From Armillaria gallica (lineage: Eukaryota > Basidiomycota > Agaricomycetes > Agaricales > Physalacriaceae): a stretch of 64,000 nt of DNA. Below the pieces are notes generated by a model. The model was not told the origin of the DNA. It worked only from the letters and a program-made list of their open reading frames with translations, and did no database searches. Position numbers and translations under genes: made by a program. The DNA is taken from assembly GCA_037576215.1 (NCBI GenBank), contig JBANDB010000019.1, positions 875,501 to 939,500 on the forward strand, in the 5' to 3' direction. Positions 1 to 48,728 of this stretch are shown here, one piece after another. Positions within the stretch are counted from its first letter, which is position 1; the number at the start of each line of letters is the position of its first letter.

Positions 1-3000
1 TCATTGGGTTGTCAATTTGAAATGATTCGGTGAACTGTCCGAATGGCTTTGAGCAAAGACATTCAGAACGATTGTGTATTGCATAAGATCTGATAATTAT
101 CAGTATGGGTAGTTCGGTCAGAAAGTAGCATACTACATACTTGAATAATTGAACATCACCTGCCAGAGCTTGGGAGAAAGGGAAGCACTGCCTGTCCAGT
201 CCAGCTTCCGAGTGAATCGGGAGGTGGAGAAAGTGCACTGTTGATTGAATGGGTATGGCGAGATGAAGTTTATGGTAGGATCTAGTCCCTGTGATTGGTC
301 ACGAAATTGAACAGGGATCATTGTATATGGGACAGCTGGTCGAGAATGACATGGTAAAATGAGGATCATTTTGACCAGCATGGCACATGCCCATGAGTGT
401 GGCTTAAGTCCTTGAGTGAAGAGGACCCACCATTTTCAGAACGTGAGGCATGTGCAAAAGGTAGGTGCAGCAGCAGAAAACATCAAGTCAGAAGTAACAA
501 GAATATTAATTTCAAGGGTGACATCCAACTGGCGCAAGTTTAAAGGCTCAATGGATAAGTAGCAAGCAAGGGGGAAAAGGCATGAGAAAATGATGGCGGG
601 AGCCAGATCAGGCATGAAATTGCTTATCTCCTCGAGCCGCAGATTTAGGGGAGTCAAGAAATTTGGCCAACGAATCTAGCCAAGAGAGAACGTTCCCATG
701 GGTTTCCTCTCTTGTCACCAGTGTTCACTATGTAGCACTGAATTTCAGCACTTCAGTTGTTCGCGTCATCCTCGAGAAGAATATGCAGGAATTGACATAC
801 CAGATAAGATTGTGTGTCTCACTTGAGGCTTTTACTGACATAGAAATTGCAGTAATTTTGTGGACAGGGATGGATAAGAGAGGGATGATGAAGAGCGATA
901 CCAGTGCATTCCCGTGTCCTGGACAGATAGAGGGATTGACCTTCTGATGGTTTTCATTCTTCACAGATACCGGCTGCCCCCTTATCGTCGCTATGAAGGT
1001 CATTGCACAGGCCAGGAGCCAACATCAAATCGACGACACTCAAGGATGCTGCGAAGCTCTGGACAGATAGTCTCGATAGTCTCGAATTTGCTGACAAATG
1101 TGTGTGTGTTACCTTCATTTATAAGGAAATGCACCCAGACTGATCCCATTTCTGTAGTGGGCTATCAGTCGACACCATTCTCCTCGACTTTGGCCAACTC
1201 GTTGTCAGTGCGTTCTGTCCTTACTCTGATGAACACTGACATCCCTTCTCTCGATATTTCACAACATGAATGTGACCAGTAAAGATCTCATTGGATTCTG
1301 TACCCATGCCAAAGGCAGTTCCCAATCCCCGAAAAAGCAGTACAGGACTGTATTCATTTCGCTTACGCTGAGGAAGACTAATCGCAGTACATCTGGTACA
1401 AATATTTGCCGTATGGACACAAGAACACAATAGATGGGGACAAGGCTGCACAACAAAGTCAGCTTCGAATGTGATGGCTTCGTAATGAATCATTGTCAGT
1501 TCACCGTTATTACCTGATTGTGCTTTTACTGATTCTGATTTTTTGTATAGCAGACCTGTGTAACTGTCGCACATCTCTTCAGGGAGTGGTCATGACCGGG
1601 ATTCGAACCAGAGGCCATCCCAATTTTGAAGTCGCTGAGGACTTGCCTAGTGACTTTACCTCCTCTTCTCCAGTTGAACTTGCGTACATTCAGAGTCCAG
1701 CTTTGGGTGTTTCCCTGTTCCCATCAAGTATCTTCAAGCTTGCAAGGGTGTTTGGGAAGCCCTGCTCTGCTCATGGACCGGACCAATCCTTCCGACTCTC
1801 ATACAGCGGCAATGCCGCACTGCCTATGTGATCCACTTGATTCGATCTGCGTCCTCCCTTCTTTTCAAAATCGTTGACCCAGAATCACCAGGCTCTTCCC
1901 AAATCTCTTCTGTGTAAAAGGAATAGCGCTATCTGACTCCTCCCACTTGTATACCTACTACCTCTCCCAGTGAGCTCCACCTTGTGATTTTTCATCGCTT
2001 TCAACCCGTGAACTCGTTTGGATCACCACTGTCTGTACACAATTTCTGGAGATCATCGTCTCTATCATGGCTGAATGGTGTAAGCTTGGGCCTGCACACT
2101 GTAATATCTGTCCAAAGACATCACATCTCCTCGATATGCATTCAGCTATCTCGATCTCACTCCTACAATGGCAGTCGAGTAGCTTCTCTTCCAAAGATTC
2201 CTCACCCTTATAGCATGCGAGGAGGTCAAGATGCTCCGAGGGCAGCTCCAACTTTGTTTCATCACTACGTATTGTGCTCCAGCATCCAAGACGCATGGAA
2301 CAATGAAGGTGCTGCAAACTGTCGCGCATAAGTTTGGAGGCTTAGCTGCTGCGCGATATGAGGAGGATTTGTCGACCACACTTTGAACCTTGCCCATCGG
2401 CCCTACATAAGCTTGCAGCTAGCGAGCGTTTCGATATTGTGGTCGCTTGGCCATGGACTGGGATTGCAGTTGGATGAGGAGCCTGTGGGGGTATGATTGG
2501 GTTTGGGGTACGTCATTGAGTCGGTGCATTTGCATCTTTTGCTAATCACATTGTGCAAAGGATTGTCTTGAGCATGGATGGTGCTCATGGCTTGATGGCA
2601 AGTTGTACGGTGTTCACTCCATCCTGTTTTGTGGCTGTTTCTTTCTGGAGAAGCATAGCACTGTATAAAGTGTGTCGCCCATGGGTGCACCCAGGAACCA
2701 GTCCTTGTGCTGAAGTGTGAGATTAACTGTTCTTCCAGTCTACAAACTTGATCATGAGCACCTGAGCTACCACGTTGCCTACATTTCTTCATCTGTTACC
2801 ATCATCACCCTCGACAGCGACTCAACTTTCTCTAACACACACATTGACAAGGCCTTTAACAAAGACCGCAAAGAAATCGCAGTTCTGCTAAGGACACCCT
2901 TAATTGTCTCAACACAAGCTCGTCAGGATTTAGTGACTTGCCAGAAATATTGTTCATGGTCGACAATGCTGAAATCACACAGACACAGCAGCAACAGACT

Positions 3001-3100
3001 AGCCAGGTTGCTACTCTGCTACTCAAGGTGATACAGGCAATACTTTGCATTCTACTACACCGCTTCATCAGCCTGTAGCCACTTCTACTTCTACCTAGAC
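1..3100. other. No recognisable gene
   Basis: Open frames here are short (under about 130 codons), lie on both strands over the same DNA and show no motif I know. No splice-site pattern links them into a longer product. The only structured item is a tRNA-like stretch at about 1589-1654, listed separately. Either intergenic DNA or decayed coding DNA is possible. Confidence 0.5.
1589..1654 (-). other. tRNA-like sequence, probably a tRNA relic or SINE head
   Basis: On the minus strand there is a canonical Pol III B box, GGTTCGAATCC. A D-arm-like stem (aagtc paired with gactt) lies upstream. The ends, gtcacta and tcatgac, pair at about five of seven positions. A convincing anticodon stem is missing, the T stem has a mismatch, and the total length of about 66 nt is short for a tRNA. 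It is best read as a degenerate tRNA or a tRNA-derived SINE head. Confidence 0.25.
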
Positions 3101-3123
3101 TGCTGCAACAATCGCTCTCATCG

Positions 3124-3756
3124 TTGCATCCCACTTTGACAGCTGTATGCAACGTATCAATTGGCAGCTTACAACCAGCAATACCAGCAGCATTATTGGC
3201 CACCATCACGCTACATCGAACATGTCGTCTTTCCACTCTGGTCTTCACCATTCCAAACAGTTTTGTAGGATGCAGTTATAACGACGCATCTGAGTCTGGA
3301 CACCTCTTCCTGAGCACCACTCCACTGCTCCCTATGCCAGCCTTGCTCCCATCAGGGGCTATGTGGCTTGCCCGTGGACCTGGCCATCAGCCTCAGAGGC
3401 AGGAAACCTTGGCCCGTGGCCCTAGCATGATGAGGCCCATCTACGGCATCAATGTTCCCCTTCGCCACCACAGACAAAGTCCATGTCTAATAGTCCACAG
3501 CAGTTACATCTATAATCCAAACAACGACAACACATTTACACCCTGCACACCATCCTTCTCTGACGTTCCCCAGCCCAGTACAGATGTGGCGGCTTCCAAA
3601 TCCTCCACCACGCCCTTCCATTTCACATCTGCCACGCATACTGCTGCTGTGTTCTACTACCGAGGCAAGGAAATTCACAACGTAGGGATCGAAATATGCA
3701 TTAACTTCAATCTTTCAGAACAAGAGACAGCGCTCGCGTGTAGTTACACCTGCTAA
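3124..3756 (+). CDS. Hypothetical 210-codon ORF, low-complexity
   Basis: This is the longest open frame in the first 12 kb. The product is rich in Pro, Ser, Thr and His and has no recognised domain, signal peptide or membrane segment. A short internal duplication, with two ARGP-containing segments about 15 residues apart, suggests low-complexity expansion. The reverse strand is open for only short stretches. It could be a non-coding frame kept open by base composition. I do not recognise a family and call it a gene only tentatively. Confidence 0.2.
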   Translation: MHPTLTAVCNVSIGSLQPAIPAALLATITLHRTCRLSTLVFTIPNSFVGCSYNDASESGHLFLSTTPLLPMPALLPSGAMWLARGPGHQPQRQETLARGPSMMRPIYGINVPLRHHRQSPCLIVHSSYIYNPNNDNTFTPCTPSFSDVPQPSTDVAASKSSTTPFHFTSATHTAAVFYYRGKEIHNVGIEICINFNLSEQETALACSYTC

Positions 3757-4239
3757 TCTGGCGGAAGAGTTTCAAGCGTGCATCGTATAAGAAACATTAC
3801 TTGAGCTGGGGATGTTACAGGTGACTCATCCAATTGTTCAGACCATCCATATGATGCTGACATATGTATATACTACAGCTAAATTCATGAATGACATACA
3901 CAATGAAATGAAACCAGGATGAAAAGTATTTAAGGATGTAAAGGAATGCAGCTCAGACGTTCTATGTACTTCATCTTCAAATGTATGCATCTTTTAATAC
4001 CTTGCCAAAAGCTGGGTCTAGGAGTTTGCAGGGTCAGGACTTTTGAAGCAAATAAAGAGGGAGTCGACCACTGCTTGAGTGAGTCACAATCTTGTGAGTG
4101 GCGAGGGTGGAAGGCATGTCTGGGGTCCACTCATGGGTGCATCACTGGTGAGTGCTGACCGCGTCCCTTGCGTGCCGCTGTTGAGTCTCTTTTGTGTCGT
4201 GAGGGAATCGCTTGCGTGTCGCCGAGGGACTCAGGGGTG

Positions 4240-4700
4240 TTATATATAAAGAAACTTTCTGAAACACAGCCAGTCATTGTCTTGGTGTTTCCTTTGTTGT
4301 TTCTTGAGGTGTTTCTTCGAAGAAACACCTCAATGAACACCCATTGTAACACATGGCATGTTTCATTCTGTATTTGTGCACACAAAGACTCTTTAAAACA
4401 CACCCAGAAACAAAGCAAGTAAAAACCAGATATATCTGGTCACATAAACACGTGATGAAAATGACTGACCTAATGACAATATGTCCTTATTTGAGTGTTT
4501 CATGAGGAAAATACCGGCAGAAACACAGAATTAAAGATTGGAGGTAAAACCAATGGTATTTTGTTACGTTTTTACTGTACGGTGTTTACTTTGGAAAAGA
4601 TCTATGTAAACACATGCCGGTGTTTACTAGCAGTCTTTGAGGCAAAAACACCAGCAAGCCCCAGCAGTGCATCTCCCCTTCTTTTGGTGGGGCATCATGA
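4240..4700. repeat. Cluster of GTGTTT/AAACAC motifs in both orientations
   Basis: About 16 copies of TGTTT or its complement AAACA occur in roughly 460 bp, many as GTGTTTC, GGTGTTTAC or GTAAACAC. Some pair head to head: GTAAACAC and GTGTTTAC are separated by 6 bp near 4606-4628. The repeats are not evenly spaced, so this is not a simple tandem array. It could be a foldback-type MITE or an array of protein sites; GTAAACA resembles a forkhead-type motif. No coding function is seen. Confidence 0.5.
4304..4333. repeat. Perfect 30-bp palindrome
   Basis: The 30 bases equal their own reverse complement. The centre is TTCGAA and each half carries GAGGTGTTTC. It sits inside the GTGTTT/AAACAC cluster and has no spacer, so it can form a cruciform or bind a symmetric dimer. 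The symmetry stops at the next base on each side (c on the left, t on the right). Confidence 0.85.
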
Positions 4701-5142
4701 AAATAGAGTGCATTTATCCTGCTGATACTTTCATTGTCATGTGCCCACTCCCATCCCTACATCTGCTATCCATGCCCTGTATTACTCCCTATACTACCAG
4801 CACCATCATTATGGCCTTACTACCCCCATTTTAGACCACAGGGAATATAGTGGTGAGTTCTGTTTCATCTAATGAAACCATTGTCACTGTCAAACAGCTG
4901 TTGATGCCACCCAGCTCTCTTTTCTGTCACCCACCAACAGGCTCAGTCCTGCATGCACCCAATGGAGGACATTGAAGACATCTAAGACTATGACTGCCTA
5001 GCCACCAGAGCACCTGATGTTGCCTATCCCCATCCAACATTTGGCCCTCCTGAGCCAACCAGTACACACATACACCCCGAACTTTTGCATCCCCCATTAT
5101 TTATGTTGGGGTCACAAATACAGGTTGTGTTATACCTGCCAG

Positions 5143-6421
5143 TGTTGATATGCTGTCTACATGTTCACACCTAGATTTTGCAATTTTATAATAATACTAT
5201 TGCATATCTATCTTACATTAGTGATACTCAGAGGACTATAGCTGAGGCTTCAAGCTGATAGTTAGACTAGTATGTGACTAGTAGAGTCAGGACTTAGATG
5301 TGATACCACTAATGGGTTACATCTACCAGCCAGCCATACTAGTAACTTGAATGCTAACAGGGCTAAGTAAATATGGCCACTAGTGGACAAGTAACATGAC
5401 TAGCACACCAAACAAGAGGCAGAGGACACAAATCTTGTGAAGTTTGGTCACTAGTGGACTGATCTGGGCATAAACACCTAAGTCAGGTTAATTAGTCACA
5501 TGGCAATCTTGAAACAGGACTTAGAAATGAATTAGCAATGGATTAATCTTGCAGCAGATCTGACTAGTGCAATACAGATCTATTACAATCGGCACTAGTA
5601 TAGCCAGGCTGCACCTTCAATCATGATTGATAGCTGTTACAGGCACGCTTGCCTGGCTAGTCATTTATCCTTGGCACTAGTGGAGCGTTGCTGGGCCCAG
5701 GACATGGAATACAACTGCTAGCAGAGCTCCTAGGCTCACTAGTCAGCAAGCAACTGTTTCTAGACTGACTATTGCATGATTATTCACCATTATTCATGAC
5801 TAGCCAAGAAATCCTTATCAATAATACCCCTCTAGTCAGTTATTTATATCTCAATTGTACCTTCTTTGTCAGTATATAAGTAGTGAAATAGGCACACACA
5901 TGGCTCAGGCAAGCCACCCCTGCAATTGTGACCTACTAGTCAGTATCTAGTGCCCCAATTAAAGGCTTTTGTGCTTAACCTCGATGAAGCGGCTGCTAGT
6001 CACTAAGTTACCCATAGCATTGAGTGAATAGAAGTGTCTTAGAGCAATATTTTGTGTCCTGCAAAGGCCAAGAGTGTTTTGAAGTTAGTTCAAGCAAGTT
6101 CTCAAAGTTTAAAGTATTATTCTTAGGCCAAGAGCACCACTAGTCTGCCTAGAAAGCAACTAGTAAAGTGTTTATTCACTTGTAAGACATTATAGGGCCA
6201 AGAGAGCCACTATTTTGAAGCAGTCCCAGTCAGAGCAAGCACAGTAGCTCAAGTTGAGTCACTCACTATTCATCCAATTGTGTCTTACCAACCCTGCTAG
6301 TGTGAGTAGTATGCTTGTATAGCTCACTAGTAATGAAATAAAACATCTTTAAACAACTTTCCTTGATTATTGAAGTCTGCAGAGTGCTTCTATCATACTC
6401 GAAACACCCAAATTCAATACA
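5143..6421 (+). mobile_element. LTR-like repeat, copy A (5' LTR or solo LTR)
   Basis: This sequence is about 80% similar by eye to the reverse complement of 22251-23570. It has LTR organisation: a TG start (TGTTGATATGC), a TATA-like box (gtatataag near 5873), an AATAAA signal near 6337 and a CA end (TCAATACA). A possible primer-binding stretch, TTGGTGATAAG, follows at 6422. Similarity to copy B continues about 95 bp past the CA end, so both copies keep a little internal sequence. No gag, protease, reverse transcriptase or integrase motif follows. The termini are inferred because no same-orientation partner LTR or target duplication is visible. The repeat is full of CTAGT/ACTAG motifs. Confidence 0.6.
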
Positions 6422-6429
6422 TTGGTGAT

Positions 6430-9400
6430 AAGTGTAGAGTTAGTGATTGGTTTAGTGTTGATGGTGTTCATTGCCAGCCTCTAGTCCATTTGCCACTCAC
6501 TGTTACCAAGCACATCAGTGATACATATGATGAGGGATATGGTAGATTGCCCCAACCAGGAGGGAATCAGGGCAATGACTGAGGTATGAGAGGGACATCA
6601 GCAACAGGGGAGAGTACAGTTGCATGTTAGCAAAAAACTGGGGGAACACCCTACCCCCCAGCCCTGGCTGTATATCTGAGCTTCAATACCCTGGATATAA
6701 CCACAAAGTTGTTTGCTCAAAATTGTGGTTATAACCTCAAGGCTCAATCCAGCCTCAGCCTGGAAAAAAATCTGAATGGGGTGGAAATTTTTTTTACTAT
6801 TCAGCATAAATTCTCTCTTTTTTCTGCACTGATTTCTGATCCTATCAATTATCTATTTTGGACAGTATGTCAGAACATTAGCTAATCACTTATAAAAACA
6901 CAGCCACCCCATAAATGGGTGGGTTGGGCATTGGCTCAGGCAGCACCGAATTCCACGCCCTCCCACTTATTGCCTAGCTCTGAAAAAATTTGTACATACC
7001 CAAAAAATAATCTATGTGATACTCACACCACTTCCATGCCCATTCGCCATGTATGTTGGCTGGATGCAACTGCACACGCTTGGATGTGCTGACTGTGGGA
7101 GCATATCATTTCCAATCAGGTAGTGGAGAAAATTTTTCAAAAGTGGGACATATTTCACTGCATTCTGGCAGTCCATTACATTGTTTTTAACCATATAATG
7201 TATTTTTAAGCTGCACTTTAGCTTCTCATACTTCACATAATTCTATAAATTATCAGTTGTGCGAGAACAGTAGTATCTCTTCAGTTTCGGACTTTGCCAA
7301 ACTAATCTCAGTCGGCCAGCAGCTTGCACTACTTGGAATTTTAGATACTTGAGTAATGCTATCCCTCAGAAATATAATATGCAGCTTTTATTCATATTAT
7401 TATATTTAAAAATGAGCTCTTTCATCATACAATGTCTCATATGCACACATACACATTAATTATCATACCAAAATCACCTTGAATGCATCTTTTAAAGGGT
7501 ATTCCTCTGGTCCACATCCAAATTTGAGTAAAGTATCCATAAAAGTGTAGTATACATCTATGTTGAGTACTATAAGCTCATAAATCTACCTGCCCTGATA
7601 CAATGGAATTTTAGTCAGATGAAAATAAACTAGACGAGAGCATGATGTATAAGTCTAACATGTTTCATGAGCAATGAAGTGAACTATGAGGTCCATACAA
7701 GCAGATCACATGGATCGGACACTTCATGTCAATAATAGCATCCATACTATTGCATATCCCACCCATGCAATATTTGTAGAAAGTATGTAGCACTGCATAC
7801 AAATATATATATCATTGAAAATGCCCTCAAATGCTAGATAATTGAAGTAAAGTTGATATTATGACCTGTTACAAAGGTCCAGGAGACTAAATATCATTTA
7901 TGTGTACCATTTATACCTGTAATATTGTGTGCTGATGGTTTTCGGAGCCTCGGAGAGTGTGCATCGAGCAATATAGGATCCTGAGGATGTGTTCTGCTCA
8001 CTCGATCACCCAGATCATACAACCACGCAGTGATCGAGTGGCTGTATGGTATGTTTCATTCTTTTATGGAATGGTGAATTCTCCAAGTTCAATAACCTCA
8101 ACTCACTAGAAGGATTCTCTATTGGCACCCATCTGGAGGCTAGAGAACATAATAACTGCAAATGAACCTCAATCACAATGACGATGACCCACAGGCCAGT
8201 GACGATGATGATAGGAGAAGCAGAGGAGAGTCCCAGTACAAAGGAAAGGTGGCAGAGAACAGGACAAGACTTTGGAACTGAGAGGAGGAGGCTGCAAAGT
8301 GTAAGGAGGAAGGAAGGGTGTGAATGAGAGAGTGGGATGATGAATGGACCATCAATGTCCAACAATGACAGTGGCGGCAATGCCTCTTCAGACATCAACA
8401 CTACTCCCATGCATGCGATAGAAGACACCAACATTATGCTGATGTGAGCACCAACAATCCTGCCACTGCTGTCCCTGCCCAAAAGCAACATCAGCTCATA
8501 CCACCTGCTCCAGGCCTCCAATCAGGCCCACTTTTTATGCATGCCCCATTTTCGACATGGGATATCATGACTATTAGACCTGTTTTTCCCACCAATGATG
8601 CCATCACCACTGACAGCGACGATGACACCTGATCCTCATTCCTGCCTGATCCTGGACCCCACAACTGCCGTACTTCCACCATCAGAGCACCATACCCATT
8701 TTTGACACTGGGGAATCTAATGGTGGTCACCACCCTCACTGGAGAATGCAGGAATGGGCTGGAGAGGGTGGGCAGGAGGGCAGGATGGAGATCAGGTCTC
8801 TGATGGCCAACAAAAAGTGTGACCAATACACTCTTTCAGGCATTGATGGCATGTTGAATGCACCTACTATCACAGAGTTATGACCACCATGATGCTCACT
8901 GCTGCCTCCCCACCCTCTCCCAACATCATGGACCCCTGGGCCACCGAACCCACCTGCCTACCCCGTACTGCATATCTTATGATGCTACACCATATGCTGT
9001 TCATGCTCAGTGACTGAGCTCATCATCGTGCTGCCCAGCACAACAGTGTGCATTTTTTATTTATTCTGTTCTATCTTTACCTACATGTGTATCGATAGAT
9101 TTGCCAATAAAATGTACCTTTATGGCCCAGTTGTTATGTCATTTGTCTTCTGGTTTGTGAGCTCTTTGGTTCAAAATTCAAATCCGGAGTATGCAATTTG
9201 TATTGATCATTTTTTGAGTCCTGGCAAAAATATTGACATCTAGACCTGTCACCTGTGTTGTCGAATCCAACTAATGCTTTGCGTGTGAGGTCTGGGTAGG
9301 CTTGGGGAAATGGTTGAACATATTTTTTATATTCAAAATCCTTTTTTATGCACCCATACTGTGAGCATAGGTGCAGAAAATCAAATAAATATTATTCTGA

Positions 9401-12150
9401 CACTCACACTGGCCAGAATAGGATTTAGCAGTATATGACCAAGCATGCACATCATAGCAGCACATTGCCTAAAAGGGCCCATGGTTATTATCCATGAAAT
9501 AGGCATCTGTCATTGTGGTTATAACCATACCTTGAAACTAACTACTACAGCCATGAGTGCTGCTCTGGCTCTTTCAGCTTCTGCTGCATTACAAGGGTGA
9601 TGAAAAAATCACCAGTGAAACAGGTGCCCTGGTTTGTTAGATTGGGGGCCAATGCATCCAGTAGGCTGTTGGTAAGTCCATCCCACCAGGTATTCCAGCT
9701 ATCACAATGTACTCACAATTCCAAGTGATGGTTGTACATAGATAGTCTGCAGATTGTCTCTGCTATGCTTTGGTAAGGCTGATTCTCGTATATTATAAGA
9801 TGGAAGTGAGCCTTTTTTGCAGAGCTCCAACTTTGTGTGACCTTTAATATCTAAGGGAGAGAATCAGACACAAGATTAAGCTTGAAATGTAAAGTCTCAA
9901 GTAGTTGGAGCTGCTGGAGAGTAGGCACAGTGTCCTGCTCCTCACCATTAGCTATGATAAAGTCAGTGAAGACATACCCAAGTTATGTGGATATGAATAT
10001 ACCTCTGATAGTTAGGTCCTCCACAGATTCACTCTAACAGTCCCATATGTCTTCCCATACTGAGAAATTCTAAATGAATATGAGTCACAGTGTTGATGCA
10101 TAGCTTGAATCCAAACACTTTGTCAATGTCTTATCACCATGGAGGGTCACATAAGAAGGTATATTGTCCTCAAGGGTACCAGCTATAGCATCTATAATCC
10201 TCTCCAATGAAGAACTAGATTAATCCTCTTGGTTGTATATAACCAGTTCATCAAGGACTGTGCTATACTTAGGGACAAGTGTCAAACCCATAGTCAAGAA
10301 TCTATGATCTTCCCTCCAGCTGTCAATGTCATCAAATGGTTCAGATACCGTGGTTGCCTTTTCATTGTCAGATACATCTATATAACAAGACCATTTGTAA
10401 CTTACAATAAACAGGACTGACACTCTATCCAATGTCAAACTACTGAGCCATGACCTGTTGTTGCAAAGGTGGTACAACCTAAGAGCAACCTGCAGTACCA
10501 TCTCCCAAACTCACAGAGTTTCTACTGTGTGAGATAGGCAGTATAATAATGGCCAAACCCTGCACTTGATCATTGTCACTTCCTTCAATTACATCAACAA
10601 ATGCAGGAACCATCTGTCTCATCTCCTGGTTCAACCGTGGTGAGTGAAAAGTCCTTGTCAAGGATGTCCTGGTATCTAATGTCAATCTGGTATCCAGGAA
10701 GTTCTGATATAGATTCACTCAGAGTGCTTTTGACATCAGAAGAAGAGGATGAAGACATGCTGAATATTAGATATGAAGAGCATGTTCAATGAGGAAAATA
10801 GAAGACAATGTCTGACATCTGATTGCTGATGGTCCAGAAGTGTATACCCTTTCTGACTTAAAAGGTGAATTTGTATTGTTGAACTCAAGACTGATTTCAG
10901 GTGACAGTCCTCTGCACCATTGGATACCTGGAAATGAACCCCAGATAAGAATCTACCAAATAGACGTGCCAAGTAAAACATTCTTAAACATAGTCAAAAC
11001 CAAAATATCTCAGTGCTGTCATGTGAAGTCTCCAATGAGAGCATACAGTAAGTTAGATAGCTTATATATTGTAGATGATATTTACTTCTTGCTTCAGTAC
11101 AAAATAGATTCAGATTTGGCTATCCTGCCAATAGTAATTGATACTACAACAACCTCAAAGTTCACAAGACATGCTTGTTGCCAACAAAATGTTTGTATAG
11201 ATATAGTTGACTTCAATGATGTCATTGCCAGATCCAGGTACTGGCTACTACTCTGCCTGTATGTCAACACAGACATCAACAAAAAGTGAGACATTTCCTT
11301 TTACAACACAGCCTTGTGAACTGCTAATTTGATTCGTGACTTTAAATACTACTGATCAGCAAGTTCATATAAAACTAAAAATAATTTTCTATTATTAACT
11401 TTCTTGCAACCAAAATGCCTTCTTACAGACGAAGAATGTAAGAAGATTGCCAGAGAGAGAAAAGCAGCTCAATGATACTGTGTACAATTCTCGATGTTGT
11501 TTAGAAAACATGTTAACTATTAATTCATATGGCTTCTGCAAAGGCATGTAACATCAATTGGAGACTGTCTGACAGTTTGCTCAGTATATTGGAACCAAAA
11601 CCAAATACTGAAAAACAATGTGCAAACATAGCACCAGCCAATATTTGATCTGCAAAACAAATCACAGCAGACAGTGGCAATGGTTCACTTGCCCAAAAAT
11701 GTCTAAGACCAATAGACTTGAGTTTTATCCTTTACATGCCAAGTAATCCATCTGAACTTATTGCACTTCTTCATTTGTGTCATTATGAATGTAAAGCTTC
11801 TTTGTTTCAATTCATGCATGCTGTTGATGCAGTAATGGAGTCACATTGGCCTGCAAGGTATAAAAACAGTGGGTGCTATTGAACTTCCACATGAGGATAC
11901 TGTCTTATTTAATAGTAGCTTTCAATATGGCTGCCAGTGCAGATTACTATTTCCCACTTGCAACAATAATACACCCTAAGACAGGAGAAAGAGAGAGATG
12001 CATTGTATGCTTGTGTCATTATAAATAACAGAATGTTCTGAAGTTTTCCCTTGGTTAGACTAATAGATGACTTGGACTATGACCCAATGTCTGAGCTGGA
12101 GTTGACAATTACTGTGTTGCTTAAAGGCACCAGCATTTTATCTTACTTAA
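6430..12150. other. AT-rich stretch without a recognisable intact gene
   Basis: Open frames are short and on mixed strands. Frames at 8015-8521 (minus) and 8444-8632 (plus) overlap and show no known domain. Minus-strand frames between 10220 and 10981 look protein-like in places, for example a run of acidic and polar residues encoded near 10600-10740, but adjoining pieces are in different frames with stops between them. A plus-strand ORF at 10840-11289 (149 codons) is also unrecognised. A short inverted repeat with arms CACTCGATCAC and GTGATCGAGTG lies at about 8000-8040. This is probably decayed mobile-element DNA. Confidence 0.4.
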
Positions 12151-12231
12151 GATGGTCCATTTTCCTAATTCATTTCTTATAGCCACATTGATTGTAGAAG
12201 AGGTGGAGACATGTGATGGTGAACATGAGGT

Positions 12232-14787
12232 TTGGTTAAAATTTCTCTATTTGTGCACTCACAGACTAGCACTCTACAGAACATGTTGGCCCCACTTAAA
12301 TGTGCTGAAAAAAACTGTGATCTACAAGCTTATCTAGAGGAGATAGGAAGATATGTCACTTGTATCCAACAAGCTCCATCTATCCTGTTTGATGATAGCA
12401 CATATCAACATATTATTGAGGCTGGATACTCTAAGGTTGTTAGGCCACACCACCACAGTTGGAAAAAATACAAAGTGGGCAAGAGCCAGCAATACAAGGA
12501 GATTTGCTCAGTGTTAATTGATAATATTGTTGATGTTGCAGGGATTGGGCCACATTCCACTTTTGTTGATCTCAGATCTGGAGTTGGAAATGTCTGCAGC
12601 CAGATTAGCTTGAAGACTGGCTGTAGGTGTTACAGTGTGGAGCTCCAGCAAATCCTGCTCAATTGGCCAGAGCTTTGTTGGAGCAGATACATGTCTTCTC
12701 TTATATATGTGGATACAAACACAAAGGACAGGTCAACTTACATCATGGAGATATGAGGACTAATGGTACCACTATGCCTCCCATCAGAGAGGCAGATGTC
12801 ATCTATATCAACAACTTCAAATTTGAGCCATCTTGTATGTATATTTTTCTGCATTTGTTTTACATTTATTTTACTCAGACACAGTGAATCAAGAGATCAG
12901 GCAGATTTTGGCTGCAAGTAATCTATATGATGGGATCAAAATCTTTGCATTCGAGCTGCTAGCTGTAAGGCATAGCACAGATGCATCCACAGATGCATCC
13001 AGATCTGTCCTGCAGATATTAGGGTACCTGATAGGTGAAATCCGCATCTGTGGGTGTGGCTGTGCCCAGATATCTGCATCCATGGCATCCGCACTGCAGA
13101 TATCTGTGTATTGTAGCTAAAATTTAATCTTCACATATTGTCAGAGGTATTGGTCCGTTTGCTCTAAGATTTGAAGCATGCATTCCTCACTATGAGGTGT
13201 CTTCAAACACTATGTTCAATTACTTGAGGGTGTCCCAATTTCAAGACAGAAAAACCAAGCAGAAATGTGGTATTTATTTCCCTTATATTTAGGCACACAG
13301 GTTCATGGCACCTTGTACTGCTAGCAGAAGGTTATAGTTGTATTCTACAACATCTAAAATATTAGTAGGCATAAATTTGGCCCAACCCATCAACAATTAA
13401 TAGCCAGAAATAGGAAGAAAACATGTATATAAAATTGTCTAAATTTCTGATTGCTCCAAGGGAGTGCCTGAATGTCAGCCCAGAACACTGGGTAGGGAGG
13501 GAGGGTTAAATGCTGGTTACAAAAAAATTTATATGACCCCCCAAATTTTTGATGTTTTCCTGTCCAAGGTAAGATAAAATGGCCTTTGTATATTGAATTT
13601 ATTCAATTCTTCATCATCTTAAGCAATATAACCTTAGAATAGTGATATCCAACTAATATTACACTCATTTAGGTTGGAGCTGACCTGCAACTGATATTTA
13701 GGCACATATTATGATTTATTGTCACATTATATAGGATAGAATGATACTTGGTTAATATGAAGGACCCTCATCAATATATAAGTCCAAAGAGCATGAAATT
13801 AGCATTAAAGAGCAATGACAGCCTGATATTGCCAAATTCGCAGCTAAGGCCGAGTCTGGCAGCTCTGGCATACCCGATATGGTATATATGACATCATAGT
13901 GGTCATGTGACAAGGAGGGAGGGTCCAGCGAAAGCCTGAAATAATTTAATCAACCCTATATATTTATTAACTTTTTGGAACCCCCTTGGATTGCTTCCTG
14001 CAGGCCTAGGTAACCTCTGATGGCAAATCTGATGGCAGATACAGATTCCATGACCTCAAAAACATTAGGCCACACCAACAAGGTCAACCTCGCCATTCAA
14101 ATGAGTGCTGGAAAAAGAAAGTAAACATTAATAAAAGATCAACAAAATCTTCTATCACTTCTCATGGGACAGGGGGTCATCTGATTGCAAATCGGATGGT
14201 GGATTTGAATTCCCTGACCTCAAGAACATTAGAATGCCTCTGTTAAGTTAGTCTTGCCACCCAAACAACTGGCAGAAAATCAAGAAAATATCTGTTTACT
14301 TACTGTGGGCCCAGGTGAGCTCGGATCACAAATCGGGCAGTGGAATTGGATTCCCCAACCTCGAAAACCCTAAGACAACTGTTTTTCAAATAGCAGTTGA
14401 AGCATCTGAAAATTTATACAGAACATCTGTGGATATAGCCAGTTACTGAAGCCATATCCACATCCGGCAGATCCAGATGCCACAGATCCAGATATCTGGG
14501 CACAGCCACATCCACAGATATTTTTTCAGATATCTGTGGATCATCCGGATCCATGTTATGCCTTAGCTAGCTGCATTCACAGATATGGACTTGACAACCA
14601 GAAATGTAAAGTTTATGCTCTGTCATGGTTGGGAATTGTTGATGCTAACTTTGTCTCTTAGTGGGACAATATCATGAACTTCTCTTATGTCAAAAAAGCA
14701 CAGCAATGTCCTACTTTGACTGGAGAGTATGTGCAATGGTCCGACCAGATGATTACTCTGCATCTTCACATTGTGGACAGACAATGA
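12232..14787 (+). pseudogene. DOT1-type histone H3K79 methyltransferase copy, interrupted by a hAT-like element
   Basis: DOT1 proteins methylate lysine 79 of histone H3 using S-adenosylmethionine. The SAM-binding core is clear: FVDLRSGVGNV at about 12562-12594 (consensus DLGSGVGN), then a NPAQLA segment and ADVIYINNFKFEP at about 12793-12830 (consensus ADVIxxNNFxF). A 44-bp intron (12835-12878) leads to VNQEIRQIL...DGIKIFAF. A 1600-bp element then interrupts the exon. After it the frame resumes as AFTDMDLTTRN, a 56-bp intron (14606-14661) follows, and the end reads LHLHIVDRQ, matching the DOT1 closing motif YLHTVDR. One frameshift of about one base lies near 12645. The first conserved Gly of GSGVG is Arg (LRSGVG). 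The N-terminus is unclear; coding probably begins upstream of 12232. This is a duplicate copy rather than the functional host gene. Confidence 0.75.
12966..14565. mobile_element. Non-autonomous hAT-like element, 1600 bp, with 8-bp target duplication
   Basis: The element starts TAAGGCATAGCACAG and its other end, reverse-complemented, starts TAAGGCATAACATGG. The tip fits the hAT consensus YARNG. Both sides carry the identical 8-mer GCTAGCTG (12958-12965 and 14566-14573), the target length expected for hAT. About 100 bp inside, both ends carry a near-identical stretch around GGCTGTGCCCAGATATCTG, and the palindrome AGATATCT recurs several times near each end, like subterminal transposase sites. 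No open frame resembles a transposase. The element sits inside a DOT1 exon. Removing it with one target copy restores the DOT1 frame exactly. Confidence 0.85.
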
Positions 14788-14799
14788 CATGAAAACAGA

Positions 14800-16950
14800 G
14801 CATGAGAGTTTGATTGTATAGTGACAGAAAGACAGATCTCTCAGAGCCAAAAGAAAGAGATAAGGAGAGTAGCAAGAAACAATGGTATCTGATTGTATTT
14901 GCATGCAAAAGCTTATACAATGTTTTTTTAGTAATTGTACTCAATTAATGAGGGGTGGTAAAGTGTCTATCCCCTCGTATATAAGTTTTTTGGATGCACA
15001 TTTGATATGAGCTAATGAGCAGTCTCCAAACCCAGTGAAAAGATGATAGAATACTGATGCTCTCATCAGTGCAGATAGTACTACCTGAACACATATTTCC
15101 AATATGTGATCAAGATTAATGGCTATGCCAACTGACTATCCAAGTGACCAGAATCATTCTTTGGGTATCCCTTTCGATTCCACACCATGGAGAGTGTTAC
15201 AACTTATTCATTTTCCTTATCTTATCTTCAGCGCCTATCCTATCTTATCTTATCCATAGGCACTCGGACCAGTCTACATGCGGTGATGGGCCTAAGACTT
15301 CCGTGGCAATGGCAACACCAACTCGGAATGAGATTGGTTAATTATCATAGTAACATGGCAATCAAGGTGATCATGTGTGTGAGTGGTCCAGGGCACCTCT
15401 GTGCAGTAGAACAATTCCTCTATATGCAAGAATACACTGCGACTTTAAGTCTGCGAAGTAGTACTGCTTGGTAGTTGAGTACTAAATGCTATGGCTTCAA
15501 GCCGGTAGGGATCTCTCAAAATGAGAGGGAACGAAAATGGGTATGATGTTCATACCACGAATCTGTATGAGAAAACGTGCTGCAAGACTAGAAAACATCA
15601 CTCGACAGTAATTGGAGCAGGGTGAACGATGGAGAATAGACTAAGCGGTCTGCAATAGTCTATGGGTGAGCGAGGCGATGAGAAAACGGCATGGGGACTG
15701 CGAGTGGCGAAATAAATGTGGAACGAGGTGCTGAGGGTGGACTGGCGAGAGAAAACGTGGAACTATGAAAACTAGTGGCAATACTGGTCCTATATGATGC
15801 GAGGGTGCTGAGTCAATGTCGAAACTTGTCTGGTACTGAAACGATCCTATCCTATGTCAAACTAACCTTCAAGTCCACTCGGGGGACTGATACTATACGA
15901 AAACTTGCTGAACTGATCCTAAGTCTGCTCTGAGACTACCCAAGTGGGCGACGATAACGATGGCAAAAGTGAAACTGTAAAAACTCCAATGGTGCGAAAG
16001 TGAAACAATGACAGCTTATAAAAGATAACGGGGGCAAGGTATGGTGCGGTGATCATGTATTGGCACAGTATGAGCGTGCACCAATAGTGTTAAGAGTGAA
16101 GAGCACGTAGCAAAGGACTCTTCACAGTTAAAAACTGTGGGATAACTCTGGTGAGCTCAAGAGTCGATGTGCAATCAAGAATATGCTGGTGCAAACGATA
16201 TATTGCTATAGAACAGTGAATAAACATTGTTTACTGGCAATAGACTAGAGTGTGACGATAATTGACATAGTCTGGGGTCAACTAGAGATGAACTGCCCTG
16301 TAACTACATTTTCTAGCTAGTTTTTATAATACAAGTATGAATTTATAAATAGAGTAAATACGCGAGACTTAGTAAGGCTGTAAGGCCTTGGCTTTGTAAA
16401 AATCAGAGGAAACATATGGTACTTCATTTTCTAAAGTAACAGCAACTCATCGACGTTGCTGTGTATGGATGCGAACCATATGGTTTTGCTGAGCAATGAG
16501 CGGATTGTTAGGTGCTGTTTAGCTGTGGATTACTTGGGCAATAGTTGTCGTGCTGAGGAGTATGCGTGGAGTAACGTTTTCTTGAGACCTTGGCGAAGTA
16601 ACAGCCTTAGTAAACACGGTCTGTAGTTGCCGTAGCTGAGAGGGTACTCGCATCTATCACATCATTTTCATTAAGTCATCAATGAGTGTGTCAACTAGTT
16701 GCTTCAGAGTGATGCATCAATTCCATATTGGGATGATTGTCAATCGAAGGTGCCTTGCCGTGATGAAGTATGGCAATTATGATGCGTGGCAAGATGGGAT
16801 GGATAACAAAGCGTGTAAGGAGGGGTTGCCATAGGATGAAAGTGGTATCAGTGGGTGTGCAATCATTGGTTTGCTGAAAGGCCATTGAAGGGATAGTAGC
16901 GTTAATTAGCAGGGAAAATCTGCAAATTCTGAGCGTACAGAGCCTGGAGG
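14800..16950. other. No recognisable gene
   Basis: Only short frames of under 100 codons are present on either strand and none shows a known motif. From about 15490 to 16650 the plus strand is purine-rich, with many short GAAAAC or GAAAC words, but no ORF or terminal repeat could be defined. The Helitron fragment of the next entry ends at about 16950. Confidence 0.4.
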
Positions 16951-16954
16951 CTCA

Positions 16955-19480
16955 TCAGCATGCATCCAGAAACTCCTTAATCTCATCATGATCCTGAACC
17001 TCTAATGTGGTCCTGTCATGGCCCTTGTAGATGTATTTATGGATATATTTGATGGCCTTGACAGAAACACAAACCTCCACATTGATGTGACAGTTATATT
17101 TTGCACTAAGATAAGGATTGTATGGGACAATATCACAGTTGGTATAGACAGTATGGGTTTGACCACACATTTTAACATACTCACAACCATTGTTAGGACA
17201 TGCCAAATTGGGATATCCATCATTGGTGAATTCAGTGTGCTCATTGAATTCTTTTGGAAAGTTCTTTGTACACTGACCATCAGGCCCCTTGCAGCAGTGA
17301 TCACATGGACCATGGACCATGCATCTGGTAACAATCTCATAAAGAACTGGCTGAGTAACAGGGTTAGGAATCTGGGCACATGAGACTGAATCAGCATCAG
17401 CAGGTGTGTGAATCTTGTCTTCAGGATCCAGAAAAATCAGAAGATGCATATGAGGGAGTCCACGCTTCTGAAATTCAATAGTATGCACCATAGCCCTGAC
17501 TTTTCCAAATATTCCACCCTTCTTTATTTTATCCAGTAAAGCCTCCTTCTTTAACTGGAAAACCTTGGCTATAATATCAGGTCGATCCTCCACTTTCTGA
17601 TCTGGTCCATCTGTATGCTTCAGAGCCTCAACAATTTCTGGCCACTGTGGGTTTGCTGTCATTGTAAGAAAGATATCTGGCTTCTGCAAAGCTCTACAAA
17701 TTGCTATAGAATCCTGATACAACTGATACATTGCATAGGGACTGCCAGTGTGTGATGATGGTAGGACAATACACTGGCCAGAGTCTTGCAATCCATCTGC
17801 ATTAGTAGCTGCATCCACCACTCCCTTATACAGATCTGCACAGATAGTTTTCTGATTGTTCCAAACCCAGTTGAGATTACTTTGTTCAATTGAAGCCCAT
17901 GCATCCACAATATACTGTTGGTAGAGTGGTTCTCCTCTATACAATGGTGCATTTGGTTCAATTCCTGGATGATCATAGAGGCAGTAAGCATAATACATAT
18001 GCTGAGTAATCTTTTTCTGTTCTCTATGTTCACTTGTTTCAGTCTCTTCCAGCAGCATATGTATATTCCAACCCAATTCTCCATGTGGAAAAAGAAGAAC
18101 ATAATGAAGAGATTGATAAGTTGGATGAAATTGGCTAATGTGCTTGAGAGAATGATCATGCATACGTAAAACAATGTCTCAATCATTTTGAACAGGCTCA
18201 GATCCATCTCCAGGAATAATAGCAGCCAACTCATTTACTGTTGGAAGATTATACCATTGCCCATCAGTACCATCACCCACATGCAATCATACTTCAATAT
18301 TTAGATACTCTTCATAGGGCTTGTTCTTCATAATGAGATATGCATGACGATACAAAGCTACATATAGATTCACATCCTGCAATAAATCTTGTAGTTGAGA
18401 CATGATTTCAGGATTTAAGTTAGGATTGCAGCAATTACACATACTCAATGCCTCTGCTGGATCATGTATATACAGCTGTGCATAAGACAATTTCCCTTCT
18501 TCCTTAGGCAGCAGAGATCCCATCAGATGATGAAGCTCGCCAGATACATGAAAGCAGTATGGTCCTGAAGAGTTGGTAATTGCCTTATCAACTTTTACAG
18601 CTACAGATGTAAATGCCAATGCTGCATTATACTGTCTAATATCTTGTAAGAAGGCTTTTGACAATGGATTGTTGCCACAAAGAAGATTTTGAAGAATGGC
18701 AGGAGCAGGAAGAAGAGGAGGTAATTTGACCTGCCCTTGTAGACAGCATATCCCAAATTGCAGTGTAACTCTTGACTTATGCTTAAGTCATTCATCATTC
18801 CAATGTAATGCTCCACAATATTCACAAATGCAATTTCTACTTCCAATATCATACTGAGCATACACCTCAGCATATGGACGTCTTGCCAGAGGAAGTTGTA
18901 CAGGAATAGCATGTGGTGGTTGATGCTGATGTGGTAGGGGTAAAGGTGGCTGCAGAGGTGGTGACTCTCTTATAGGTGATGGTGATTGCTGGTGATGCTC
19001 AGCAGAAATTTCTTGGTCAATATTTTGTGGTGGCTCAGTATGTGGAGGATGAATTTCAATAGCTCTCCCTCACCCATGTCCTCAACCACCACCACATCCA
19101 CAGCCTTGTGGACCTGCAGGAAGCTGTGGAACAGAAGTACTATCAAATGCAGATGACTGCCCTTCAGAAGCTTCACTATGTAATTGTCTACGATGTCTAC
19201 CTCTGGTGGGAAAAACAGGCAGAGATGGTACTACAGGCATAGGATGTTCACGTGGACAATCTAACTGAGATGAAATATGGGTCTCTGGAGGTATATTAAA
19301 ACATGGAAGTTCAATATTAGGATCAGGACCTGGCCATGGTGATCAATCATGACGGATAAAGGGGGAGGTCATCTGAAGGTGCTGAAGACGATCCCGCCCC
19401 TGTTCTGCACGACGATTCTGCCCCGGCGTAACCAGAGCCGGAAAATCGAAATGATCATTCTCTCTAGTAGGAGTAGATGG
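16955..19480 (-). pseudogene. Helitron Rep half: N-terminal helicase-like and rolling-circle Rep domains, no helicase
   Basis: Helitron transposases join an HUH-type Rep nuclease to a PIF1-type helicase. The reading order on the minus strand is: an N-terminal Arg/Glu-rich segment (RRAEQGRDR near 19400), a proline/histidine-rich linker, a zinc-finger-like CEYCGALHW (about 18800), FTSVAVKVD and the SGELHHLMGSLLP region, then HPTYQSLHYVLLFPHGELGW. The Rep domain follows, with the metal-binding HMH of RGLPHMHLLIF and the catalytic tyrosine motif YIHKYIYKGHD. The frame stops just after this and no helicase domain follows. TGA stops interrupt an otherwise continuous frame at 19343, two sites near 19075-19083, 18788, 18287 and 18179. 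Several sit where Helitrons have Arg (e.g. NDxDIVLR). It is inactive. Confidence 0.8.
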
Positions 19481-24953: not shown

Positions 24954-27900
24954 TTAACAAAGCCCAAGGAGCTCCATTGCAGCATTGGTCACATCACTAG
25001 TTTGAACTCCTTTATGCTCCAGTAAATAGACCCTTGCACTAAATTCTATCCATAACTGTGTCTCTGTATCTTTCAATTTACCCATTGCCTTTCTGTGTTC
25101 CACAAGGAGGTGAGCATTGCTTATCAAACCTTTGCTATCATTTTCATGATCCTGGTCAGCTTTAAGAACATATTCAACCTGATATTATGAGCATTGCATC
25201 ATTGTAGAAGACTTTACTGTCTTACCAGGAATGCTGCATATGCAACATCATCAACATTTAGACCACCCAAGGGAGGCATAGAGAGTAGCCATGGGCTTCC
25301 TGGTCCAAATAAGATGATATAGGTAACTTCACATGCAAGCTTGGTCTCAAGAAGTTCAGCTCCATTCACCTAGCAAGCAAACAGAGTTCTGAGCATAACA
25401 ATGAAATTAAAACTTTAGACACTCACATCCAAACCTTCCATAGGGTCATCTTCACCTTGTTGAAGCCAGGCTAAATATTTCCAAAATTTTTGGGTATCAG
25501 AAGACTCCCAGTTAACAAAAAATCTTGCACAATGTAGGGCTGAGATATTGAACTCCCCAGTAGCAAACAAATGAGATCCTCAAACCACCCTCCTCCATAG
25601 GTCACTTGGTTGTGAAAGATCTAATGCGGCATGCCATATGTCTGAAACAAGTAAACAAGAACCACATTCTGCCTGGTCTATATTTGCAAATGCAGGAAAA
25701 TGTAGGCCAACTGTATAAGGCCTCAACTCTCCTTCCTGCATGGAAGATACAATGGCTGTTGCAGAATTTTCAGGGCCCTTGAATAGTGATGGAAATTTCT
25801 CATGAAAAACAGCATGTGAAATTTGCCGCAGGGTGGCACCAGTCACTTGAATCTGAAAAGAATCCAAGGTGTATTTTATTAAGGCAGCATCAATCTCAGG
25901 GCCCTTCCAATTCTTCAAAATCTTTCCAGACCACTTGACACTAGGTGCCCAGATAAATGCTGAGTATAAATCAATAGCCACAGATATTGACTTAGGAACT
26001 ACTGGGGATAGAACTGCAAGCTGCATCCCAACTGGCCGAAGTATGCAGAAATAAATGGCCAAGAGCTGGGTGATCATTTTTGGAAATGCAAGAAGTGTGT
26101 CTGCAAAGGAAACACCTGTCTGTTTTGCTTTGGGATTTGCCAGAATAAACTGACGACAACTAGGACCAGTGAGAAGATAGAGGTTGTGTTTTCCATATTC
26201 AGGAAAGCTGTCATATTTCAGAGTTCCAACTTGGAAACTCCGAAAGGATGGTCCTGCAGTGAGGTGGAAAATAACAGCAATACAGGCAAGTATCTCCTGT
26301 TCAGTCAAAAACCATTTCTCCAGAGTTGCCTTGTTCTCCATCTTTAAACAATTAGCTATGCTATTCTGAAACTGCTGAAGATGCCTATCATTCTGAGGCT
26401 GTTTATGAATGGCCTCTGGAGAGAAATTGTCAGAGAGTATATCAATATTGAAGTCACCGCAACCAAATGAGGTTTTAGAAATTTGAAGCATCTGCATTAT
26501 TAGGGCAGGCAGTACTTCTTTGCACAGGTCCTGGCAGAGTGACAACCACCTTGTCATCTGAATGATCAGAGGCTCTGTAAAGGAGTCCCTGATTGTATAG
26601 GTTTGTCCATCATGGGTAACATGGAGCAAAGAACTACCAGTTTCAGTTTTCCTGGCAGCTATGGTGATATTATAAATCACCCTTTTGAGTCACTTGAATG
26701 GTGTGTTTTGCATCACTGTATTTGACAACCATTCTCTTACTTCTTGATGGATATACCTAAAACATGTATTTTCAACTGAGACATGTCTTATAATATGAAC
26801 TTACTGTGTGATCTGCATGTTAGTTGCTTCACTGCCTTGATCACCTGTATTAGAGTTTGACTGCTCTGTAATTAACTTCTTCAGACAATGTCATGGCATA
26901 TGAATGAAGAAGGTTTACCTTGATTCAAAAGGATATTACTTTCCTCTAGCAGACCTATGCCTTCCATGTCACTTGGGAGACTGTCTTCTTCACCAGAACT
27001 GGTGTCATTCTCTGAGTCTGAATCACTATCATCAACAGATGGCTGGGTTGCCTCAATATCTGATGATGAATTGATGTGGGGGGGCCAAGATATAAATTTT
27101 GCAATATTCATAGACTGAAGTCTTGCAACATGAACAATGATTGCCTGAAAGGTCCACTGCAAAGCAGCACATTCAGATCCCAGGCTTTTGGCAGTAACAT
27201 ATTGTCCTGGGCCTGCCAATGACATCAATAGAAGTGCTTGATCTGTTGGACATGCAATCAACATGCTTGAGAGATCTTCTGATGGTTGAACAAGGGCATC
27301 AAAGACTGCATGCATCAGCTCTAGTAGTTGGGTCAAACTTGGTTTGCCATCAGAGGCAAGGAGGAATTTATAAAGATCAGCTGCACACTGGAGCTGGTTT
27401 TTGGCTCCTTGCAATACAAAGTTCCCTAAGCCCAAAAGGTTATTAGATTCTTTAGCTTCCATGTACCGAACCATGAGTGCTAAGGTGGAGAAAATTGGAC
27501 GTCAATATTTTAAAATTGTTGTTGCAACAATATTACTGAATTTCCATTTGCTTCTGTTGACTAATCAGTTAATATTCCATGGGATTCTAGTGGATATAGC
27601 CTACCCTTTGGTAACCTCCTTGTGTACCTGAGGAGTACATTTCTCAATATATAAAGTTGCTGCTTGGAAATAGTGAACACACTCTGTATATAGGACACAC
27701 AGACCCTGTTCAATAGACCCTTTGTTTGGACTGCTTTGTCTTGTAGGCAATGATACCAAACCTCTCAGAACATCTATGGAGGCTTCATCCCCAAGTAGTG
27801 TCATGTAACTTGGCCAGCCCAATTTATCCAGCCAAGGAGCTTCTGAAACCTTCTCTTCAACCTGCTCAAACTCAAAGTTTGGATAAGTGGGAGCAGGAGG

Positions 27901-45010: not shown

Positions 45011-45013
45011 GCT

Positions 45014-48000: not shown

Positions 48001-48728
48001 CAGCTTTACATCTCTCAATAATTATGGCCATATTGGAATGCTTCCACCTCTCCCACACCAACCATTTTATCATGCAAAACAATCAGTGACCTTAAGTAAT
48101 ATTTGGCACAGCCTTTTAGGTCTTGGGCCAGTGGAGGAGAGCTGGGGCACTTGTATGAATGTTTTTGGACTCCATTCTTCACATGCTCTTCTCAGGCATA
48201 ATGGCCTGCATTATGCTAGAGATGCAATCAAGGCTTATGGACCATTGTCAGATCCAGAGCTGATGAAGAAGATTATCACCACCCAACCTTTCATTCATGA
48301 GAGGACAGGTGAGTCAAACTTGTAAGTCTTCCAGTTTAGGCTAACCCCATACAAGGAGATAGCAAAAATATTTTTGGTGATGCCATTCTCATCCAAGTCA
48401 CCCAGTTGATACTGCACAACATGCAACTTCAAGTTCTGAATAGAACTCAGTGTACTACTGAAGATGTGGTGACTGCAATTTCCTTGGTCAGGTTTCACTT
48501 TTCAATGAAGCAGACTGTTACTTATTGTCTCATGCAAAGCAGATCGTGCGAAGTCTGAATGAAAGGATTACTGGTTCATTTGTGGATCTAACAGTATTGG
48601 ATATTGACAGCCTGTCACATTACTTCAGTATTCAATCTCACTTCACTGCTGTTGTGGAGACCTTCAAAGGGGAGCATCCGGATGGGTGGGAGATGTTTGT
48701 GAAAGAAGTTCTTTGTACTGTCTCATAG
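45014..48728 (+). pseudogene. OrsD-domain zinc-finger protein with a recombinase-like C-terminus, copy 2
   Basis: A diverged homologue of the minus-strand gene at 24954-29423. The zinc-finger region contains FLCPCSSCN followed by HVKEFH, split by a TGA at 45716-45718; the same frame then continues to 46221. An intron (about 46221-46279) joins to YKLYSTLSYY and ACPTDQLLFLYG. A frameshift near 46625 moves coding to the frame with LQVALQAIFIHMAQ. A further intron ends near 47050. The long exon (47063-48310) holds ILRPISCRIF, YYWKGPEI, LTPAEIRHIMLPIVRHY and LHSSHALLRHNGLHYARD. A final exon follows (about 48497-48728). The arrangement of Arg, an Arg/His box and a terminal H...Y resembles tyrosine recombinases, but this is inference. 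The start is uncertain. Confidence 0.65.

What the first reader, a model, noticed from the sequence alone, without database searches (positions are those of the whole stretch)
12958..14573. hAT-like element caught inside a DOT1 exon with exact 8-bp target duplication
GCTAGCTG flanks a 1600-bp unit with TAAGGCAT termini fitting the hAT YARNG rule. Joining the two sides with one target copy gives an uninterrupted DOT1 frame (FAFELLA then AFTDMDLTTRN), and the next intron also splices in frame. The insertion therefore hit a coding copy that was otherwise nearly intact, and the event is precisely datable relative to the gene's decay.
Basis: seen in the sequence. Interest (0 to 1): 0.75.

Follow-up and report, generated by a model that had tools for sequence, protein, structure and literature searches.

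The report
Nested hAT transposons interrupting DOT1-like gene
In a honey-mushroom-type fungus, a short 'jumping gene' that cannot move by itself landed inside one of seven copies of a histone-methyltransferase-like gene, and a second, smaller one landed inside the first; this is ordinary transposon activity, shown by uninterrupted copies of the landing site elsewhere in the same genome.

Summary
GCTAGCTG (12958-12965, 14566-14573) brackets a 1600-bp insert with TAAGGCAT...ATGCCTTA ends. The other six copies of this DOT1-like gene in the genome lack the insert and hold the target once, exactly in four, with one base changed in two. Of 34 termini pairs of the family, 21 have perfect 8-bp duplications and 4 have 7 of 8; 0 of 1122 mismatched pairings reach 7. 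A 5432-bp element with the same ends encodes a protein with the hAT dimerisation domain.

'Nearly intact gene' is partly right: no stop, but a private frameshift at ~12646. It is not the fungus's main DOT1, intact elsewhere. 'Precisely datable' fails: host unit and insert do not differ measurably in decay.

New member of a known kind. More interesting is the dispersed ~6-kb DOT1-carrying unit with one common right-hand boundary.

The parts
12958..12965 (.). left target-site duplication GCTAGCTG of the outer element
   Evidence: single copy at the same place in six other gene copies
14566..14573 (.). right target-site duplication GCTAGCTG of the outer element
12966..14565 (.). outer non-autonomous hAT element, about 1060 bp of its own sequence, interrupted by the nested element
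   Evidence: relatives mostly 1.05-1.1 kb long without the middle piece
12966..12982 (+). left terminal inverted repeat, begins TAAGGCATAG
14549..14565 (-). right terminal inverted repeat
13046..13089 (+). left subterminal inverted repeat (44 nt, 91% complementary to 14476-14519)
14476..14519 (-). right subterminal inverted repeat
13449..13456 (.). left duplication of the nested element, GATTGCTC
13457..13988 (.). nested 532-bp hAT-like MITE, ends CAAGGG...CCCCCTTG
   Evidence: independent copies among L029-L039; end pattern 121 matches against 0 in control
13989..13996 (.). right duplication of the nested element, GATTGCTT (7 of 8)
12262..12834 (+). DOT1-like exon with the PF08123 core; 1-base deletion private to this copy at about 12646
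   Evidence: 3' limit read by eye
12879..12965 (+). DOT1-like exon up to the insertion
   Evidence: limits by eye
14574..14605 (+). rest of the interrupted exon
   Evidence: limits by eye
14662..14787 (+). last DOT1-like exon with stop codon, matching the C-terminus of A. solidipes P0123
   Evidence: limits by eye
9558..15199 (+). truncated copy of the dispersed DOT1-carrying unit

Best explanation
A non-autonomous hAT transposon of about 1060 bp was cut and pasted by a transposase supplied in trans from an autonomous hAT element with the same ends. An 8-nt staggered cut at GCTAGCTG, in an exon of one dispersed DOT1-like gene copy, was filled in to give the duplication. A second hAT-like MITE (532 bp) then inserted into the first and made its own 8-bp duplication. 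Shown: ends, duplications, empty sites, relatives, the nesting, and a hAT-type protein coded in an element with the same ends. Inferred: mobilisation in trans, the staggered cut, and that any transposase is or was active here.
For: Exact 8-bp duplication. Six of six other gene copies are uninterrupted with a single target. 21 of 34 family termini pairs have 8/8 duplications and 4 have 7/8; control 0 of 1122. TIR pattern 79 against 0. L067 (5432 bp, duplication 8/8): a hand-joined exon model matches PF05699 Dimer_Tnp_hAT at 50 bits, cut-off 21.4; of its 7 listed homologues 5 carry PF05699, one is named AC transposase and two hAT family dimerization protein. The window element shares its first ~142 bp at 75-78% with L067, L068 and L069, and 24-49 bp at the other end. 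Nested family: of 11 fetched loci, 9 have both ends, with duplications 8/8 in 5 and 7/8 in 4; control 0 of 90.
Against: Only the ends, not the body, are shared with the long elements, so which autonomous element mobilised this family is open. 9 of 34 pairs match at 6/8 or fewer (L010, L014, L017, L018, L022, L066, L070, L071, L074); recombination or decay could explain them, untested. Separate exons scored below the Pfam cut-off (best 13 bits for PF05699, cut-off 21.4); the significant match needed guessed exon joins. The homologue search scored only the 7994 candidates sharing most words.
Confidence: 0.96

Rival explanations
1. The 1600 bp are one single element.
For: One outer pair of ends and one outer 8-bp duplication.
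Against: Relatives L009-L028 lack the middle piece, and that piece exists alone elsewhere with its own ends and duplications.
Confidence: 0.02
2. The stretch is an intron or exonised segment of the gene, not an insertion.
For: The gene has other introns.
Against: Six other copies are continuous in the DNA at the exact point; two predicted proteins of other Armillaria species also run across it (P0123, P0124), though a gene predictor could splice out an insert.
Confidence: 0.01
3. The ends belong to another superfamily with 8-bp duplications (for example P element or KDZ/Zisupton type).
For: 8-bp duplications are not unique to hAT (recalled).
Against: The long same-ended element L067 matches the hAT dimerisation domain; the TAAGG start fits the recalled hAT end rule.
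Confidence: 0.03

Closest known systems
MarorhAT-10 (autonomous) with MarorhAT-4/-11/-12 (non-autonomous) of Marasmius oreades, PMC9674265 (12 of 14 passages shown)
   Same: A mushroom hAT with a transposase and shorter relatives that share terminal repeats, lack the transposase and are taken to move in trans
   Different: Those elements were seen moving; here only past insertions are seen. Sequence relation was not tested.
Ds elements of maize Ac/Ds, PMC3260210 (start of abstract in the listing)
   Same: Non-autonomous elements sharing terminal and some subterminal repeats with the autonomous one, varying in size and body
   Different: Another organism; no sequence comparison made
hAT element that captured histone H3 in Pseudocercospora fijiensis, PMC6710886 (abstract and outline)
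   Same: Fungal hAT, an amplified chromatin gene, inactive copies beside an intact original
   Different: There the gene lies inside the hAT and copies were inactivated by RIP; here the hAT landed in an already dispersed DOT1-like unit, and RIP was not tested
TET/JBP-coding DNA transposons of fungi, PMC12730594 (12 of 20 passages shown)
   Same: A DNA-modification enzyme gene carried by mobile DNA in fungi
   Different: No transposase was found in the DOT1 unit; the word DOT1 does not occur in that paper's main text

Membership tests
hAT superfamily | 8-bp target-site duplication | tested here: met
   8/8 in the window; of 34 family pairs 21 are 8/8, 4 are 7/8, 9 are worse; control 0 of 1122 at 7/8 or better
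hAT superfamily | short terminal inverted repeats of the recalled YARNG type | tested here: met
   TAAGG start, 17-nt TIR, pattern 79 against 0; the YARNG rule itself is recalled or from the finding
hAT superfamily | hAT transposase in an element with the same ends | tested here: met
   L067 exon model: PF05699 at 50 bits, cut-off 21.4; homologues include 'AC transposase'. Model joined by hand; single exons were below cut-off
hAT superfamily | that transposase acts on this element | not testable with these tools
   needs an experiment
Non-autonomous (MITE/Ds-like) element | no transposase of its own, many similar copies of one size | tested here: met
   relatives mostly 1.05-1.1 kb; no reading frame of 150 aa or more inside the insert
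hAT (nested 532-bp element) | 8-bp duplication and CAAGG start | tested here: met
   11 loci fetched, 9 with both ends: 5 are 8/8 and 4 are 7/8; control 0 of 90; L032 and L033 gave no pair
hAT (nested 532-bp element) | transposase-coding partner with the same ends | not tested
   121 end matches counted, no long elements fetched
Helitron (for the DOT1-carrying unit) | TC start, CTRR end, A-T target, no duplication (recalled) | tested here: inconclusive
   no duplication seen at C20 and C19b, but ends GGAATG... and ...CAAGT do not fit the rule

The most novel reading that the evidence does not exclude
The interrupted gene is itself cargo: a ~6.2-kb mobile unit has carried a DOT1-type histone-methyltransferase-like gene around Armillaria genomes, with one identical right-hand boundary in every copy that reaches it and a gene that stayed under coding constraint between moves. 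Odds lowered from 0.3 to 0.25 on re-checking: the 42-bp motif at that boundary recurs elsewhere, but in the C11/C5/C7 repeat similarity runs on past it, so there it is not an end.
Probability: 0.25. Interest if true: 0.5.

Novelty: new member of a known kind. Interest (0 to 1): 0.27.

Why it matters
The insertion has six natural empty sites in one genome, which fix the ends and target duplication of a hAT-type family of this Armillaria-like fungus and link it to a coding element; a second family comes with it. The wider point is that a DOT1-like gene has been spread as a repeat, most copies broken, the window copy nearly emptied of CpG, while the real DOT1 stays intact: possibly a further case of a chromatin-enzyme gene riding with mobile DNA in fungi.

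Tried and rejected
Single-element reading: rejected. Intron reading: rejected. Precise dating: tried three ways without result. (1) CpG kept in the window copy at sites that are CG in at least one other copy: DOT1 unit 4 of 84, outer element 9 of 104, nested element 2 of 24; Fisher p 0.39 (DOT1 vs outer) and 1.0 (outer vs nested); with stricter site choices also not significant, on few sites for the DOT1 unit. Some of those CGs may be gains in the other copies. CpG observed/expected looked different (0.06 left and 0.13 right part of the unit, 0.22 insert), but starting levels differ, so I did not use it as a date. (2) Terminal branches 0.050-0.064 (DOT1 unit) and 0.046-0.055 (outer element) overlap; the nested element's 0.115 only shows that no close relative was fetched. 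(3) Distance without CpG columns: window unit to other units 4.2-8.3%, window outer element to its nearest fetched relative L009 3.6-5.5%.

Helitron origin of the DOT1 unit: PF14214 has 148 listed matches, a lower bound. By eye, seven places with the boundary motif outside the unit (C4, C5:5635800, C7, four on C11) have none within 10 kb, but the C20 unit copy has one about 2.5 kb beyond its left end and the window has one beside its truncated end; the ends do not fit the recalled rule. Left open. F-box/LRR nature of antisense frames in the unit: a by-eye idea; four frames of L059 gave no Pfam match at E 0.1; dropped.

Papers. I saw only the listed rows (for example 15 of 794; 1 of 1; 2 of 2) and the passages or abstracts named above. 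Nothing seen there describes this element or a DOT1-carrying repeat in Armillaria; that is no proof of absence in print.

Full report
What was checked. The window is contig C19:875501-939500 of an unnamed 86.0-Mb genome in 28 contigs. The host's intact DOT1 is closest to an unnamed protein (96%) and, among named ones, to Armillaria novae-zelandiae (89%). The DOT1-like gene of the window, searched with the C20 copy, has six hits; the four with names are from Armillaria gallica, A. solidipes and A. nabsnona (two). I take the fungus to be an Armillaria; published A. gallica assemblies of 79.9-87.3 Mb fit (PMC10204328, passages). This is inference.

The insertion. GCTAGCTG stands at 12958-12965 and again at 14566-14573, directly outside TAAGGCAT and ATGCCTTA. 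The window's gene copy is one of seven copies of a unit on contigs C19 (two), C20, C3, C5, C14 and C1, alignable pieces of which are about 84-93% identical in DNA. When the left flank (12200-12965) and right flank (14566-15199) are compared separately with the other six copies, both run up to the same point and overlap by the target. The 8-mer is exact in C20, C19b, C3 and C1; in C5 and C14 its first base is changed. So 6 of 6 other copies are natural empty sites. Two predicted proteins of other species, P0123 (A. solidipes) and P0124 (A. nabsnona), also run across the point.

Two elements, not one. Searching the genome with the 1616-bp stretch gave 90 matches, a lower bound. They fall mainly into two sets: pieces from positions 1-498 and 1032-1616 that adjoin each other, and pieces from 499-1031. 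The outer element is thus about 1060 bp, and relatives are mostly 1.05-1.1 kb. The inner one, 13457-13988, belongs to another family with CAAGGGGG...CCCCCTTG ends; its own duplication reads GATTGCTC/GATTGCTT. Of 11 fetched loci of the inner family, 9 had both ends, with duplications 8/8 (5) or 7/8 (4); L032 and L033 gave no pair; 0 of 90 mismatched pairings reached 7/8. Its end pattern occurs 121 times against 0 for the reversed control.

Why hAT. The TIR pattern gave 79 matches and 0 in the control. Of 36 loci examined, 34 gave a pair of ends: 21 with 8/8, 4 with 7/8 and 9 with 6/8 or fewer; among 1122 mismatched pairings none reached 7/8. Four pairs of ends 5.4-6.1 kb apart were fetched: L067 and L068 have 8/8, L069 7/8 and L066 1/8. 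Single exons of L066, L067 and L069 scored below Pfam cut-offs, but a hand-joined exon model of L067 matches PF05699 at 50 bits, cut-off 21.4. It has seven listed homologues, five with PF05699; one is named AC transposase and two hAT family dimerization protein. The window element shares its first ~142 bp with L067-L069 at 75-78% and 24-49 bp at the other end.

The gene. The exon matches PF08123 DOT1 at 50.3 bits. The genome has nine PF08123 matches: the intact host gene on C6 (L058), the seven unit copies, and a weak one on C17 that shows no DNA match of 80 bp or more to the unit. The window copy has a 1-base deletion at about 12646 that none of the other six shows, and DLRSGVG where C20 has DLGSGVG; C19b has the same, C5 and C14 have the R with further changes. 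Measured against P0123 by tblastn, the window copy has no stop in its exon pieces but changes frame once; C20 shows no stop or frame change in its exon pieces; C5, C14, C3 and C1 have stops, and C19b changes frame. Pairwise dN/dS in a 121-codon stretch is 0.27-0.46 for the six pairs with the window copy and 0.27-0.79 over all 21 pairs, which suggests some coding constraint in the past; the sample is small and CpG change was not corrected for. 'Nearly intact apart from the insertion' is fair for stops and wrong for frame. Whether the frameshift came before or after the insertion is not known.

Dating. Private changes of the window copy in the two flanks are 24 transitions and 8 transversions plus two 1-base gaps. 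CpG is almost gone in unit and insert alike: kept 4 of 84, 9 of 104 (outer) and 2 of 24 (nested), no significant difference. Terminal branches and non-CpG distances overlap too. What can be said is an order, by parsimony: the unit's copies separated first (six lack the insert), the outer element came second, the nested element third.

The unit that carries the gene. C20 and C19b share positions 941-7120 (C20 numbering, with internal indels), and the six copies that reach the right end stop at the same base (within one base for C14) after ...CCTTTCAAGT; the window copy is cut off earlier. Unrelated DNA follows in the five copies read there (C20, C19b, C14, C3, C1) and in a fragment on C6 (L084). 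About 42 bp of that end recur at C4:198593, with no further match in the 601 bp fetched, and in a repeat on C11, C5 and C7; in that repeat, however, similarity continues past the motif, so there it is not an end. A shorter pattern has 15 matches in all, 0 in the control. The left end is found in two copies only. No duplication is visible at C20 or C19b, and the four other frames tested have no Pfam match. A mobile origin is possible, its class is open, and segmental duplication is not excluded.

Verdict. Ordinary and well supported: a non-autonomous hAT element with a second hAT-like MITE inside it, in one decaying copy of a dispersed DOT1-like gene.

Noticed in passing
9558-15199: The DOT1-like gene lies in a dispersed unit of about 6.2 kb (7 copies, alignable pieces about 84-93% alike in DNA) with the same right-hand boundary in the six copies that reach it.
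   Followed up: partly
L083, L078-L082: About 42 bp at the right boundary of the DOT1 unit recur on C4, C11, C5 and C7; on C11/C5/C7 similarity continues beyond the motif.
   Followed up: partly
15283-16955: A repeat 89% identical to one lying inside the C3 copy of the DOT1 unit (L060), close to the truncated end of the window's unit.
   Followed up: no
16955-18178: Helitron_like_N reading frame on the minus strand (192.7 bits); the genome has 148 listed PF14214 matches.
   Followed up: partly
25580-28815 and 45005-48325: Two clusters of long reading frames on opposite strands that look alike by eye; the three frames tested have no Pfam match above cut-off.
   Followed up: no
60506-62521: PIF1-helicase-like frames by eye; the one tested has only a sub-threshold Pfam match (13.8 bits).
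   Followed up: no
L071, L072, L073: A 327-bp element, nearly palindromic, with TAAGGCATAG-type ends and duplications of 6/8, 7/8 and 8/8.
   Followed up: no
14016-14373: A 53-nt direct repeat in three copies inside the outer element (62% and 81% identical to the first).
   Followed up: no
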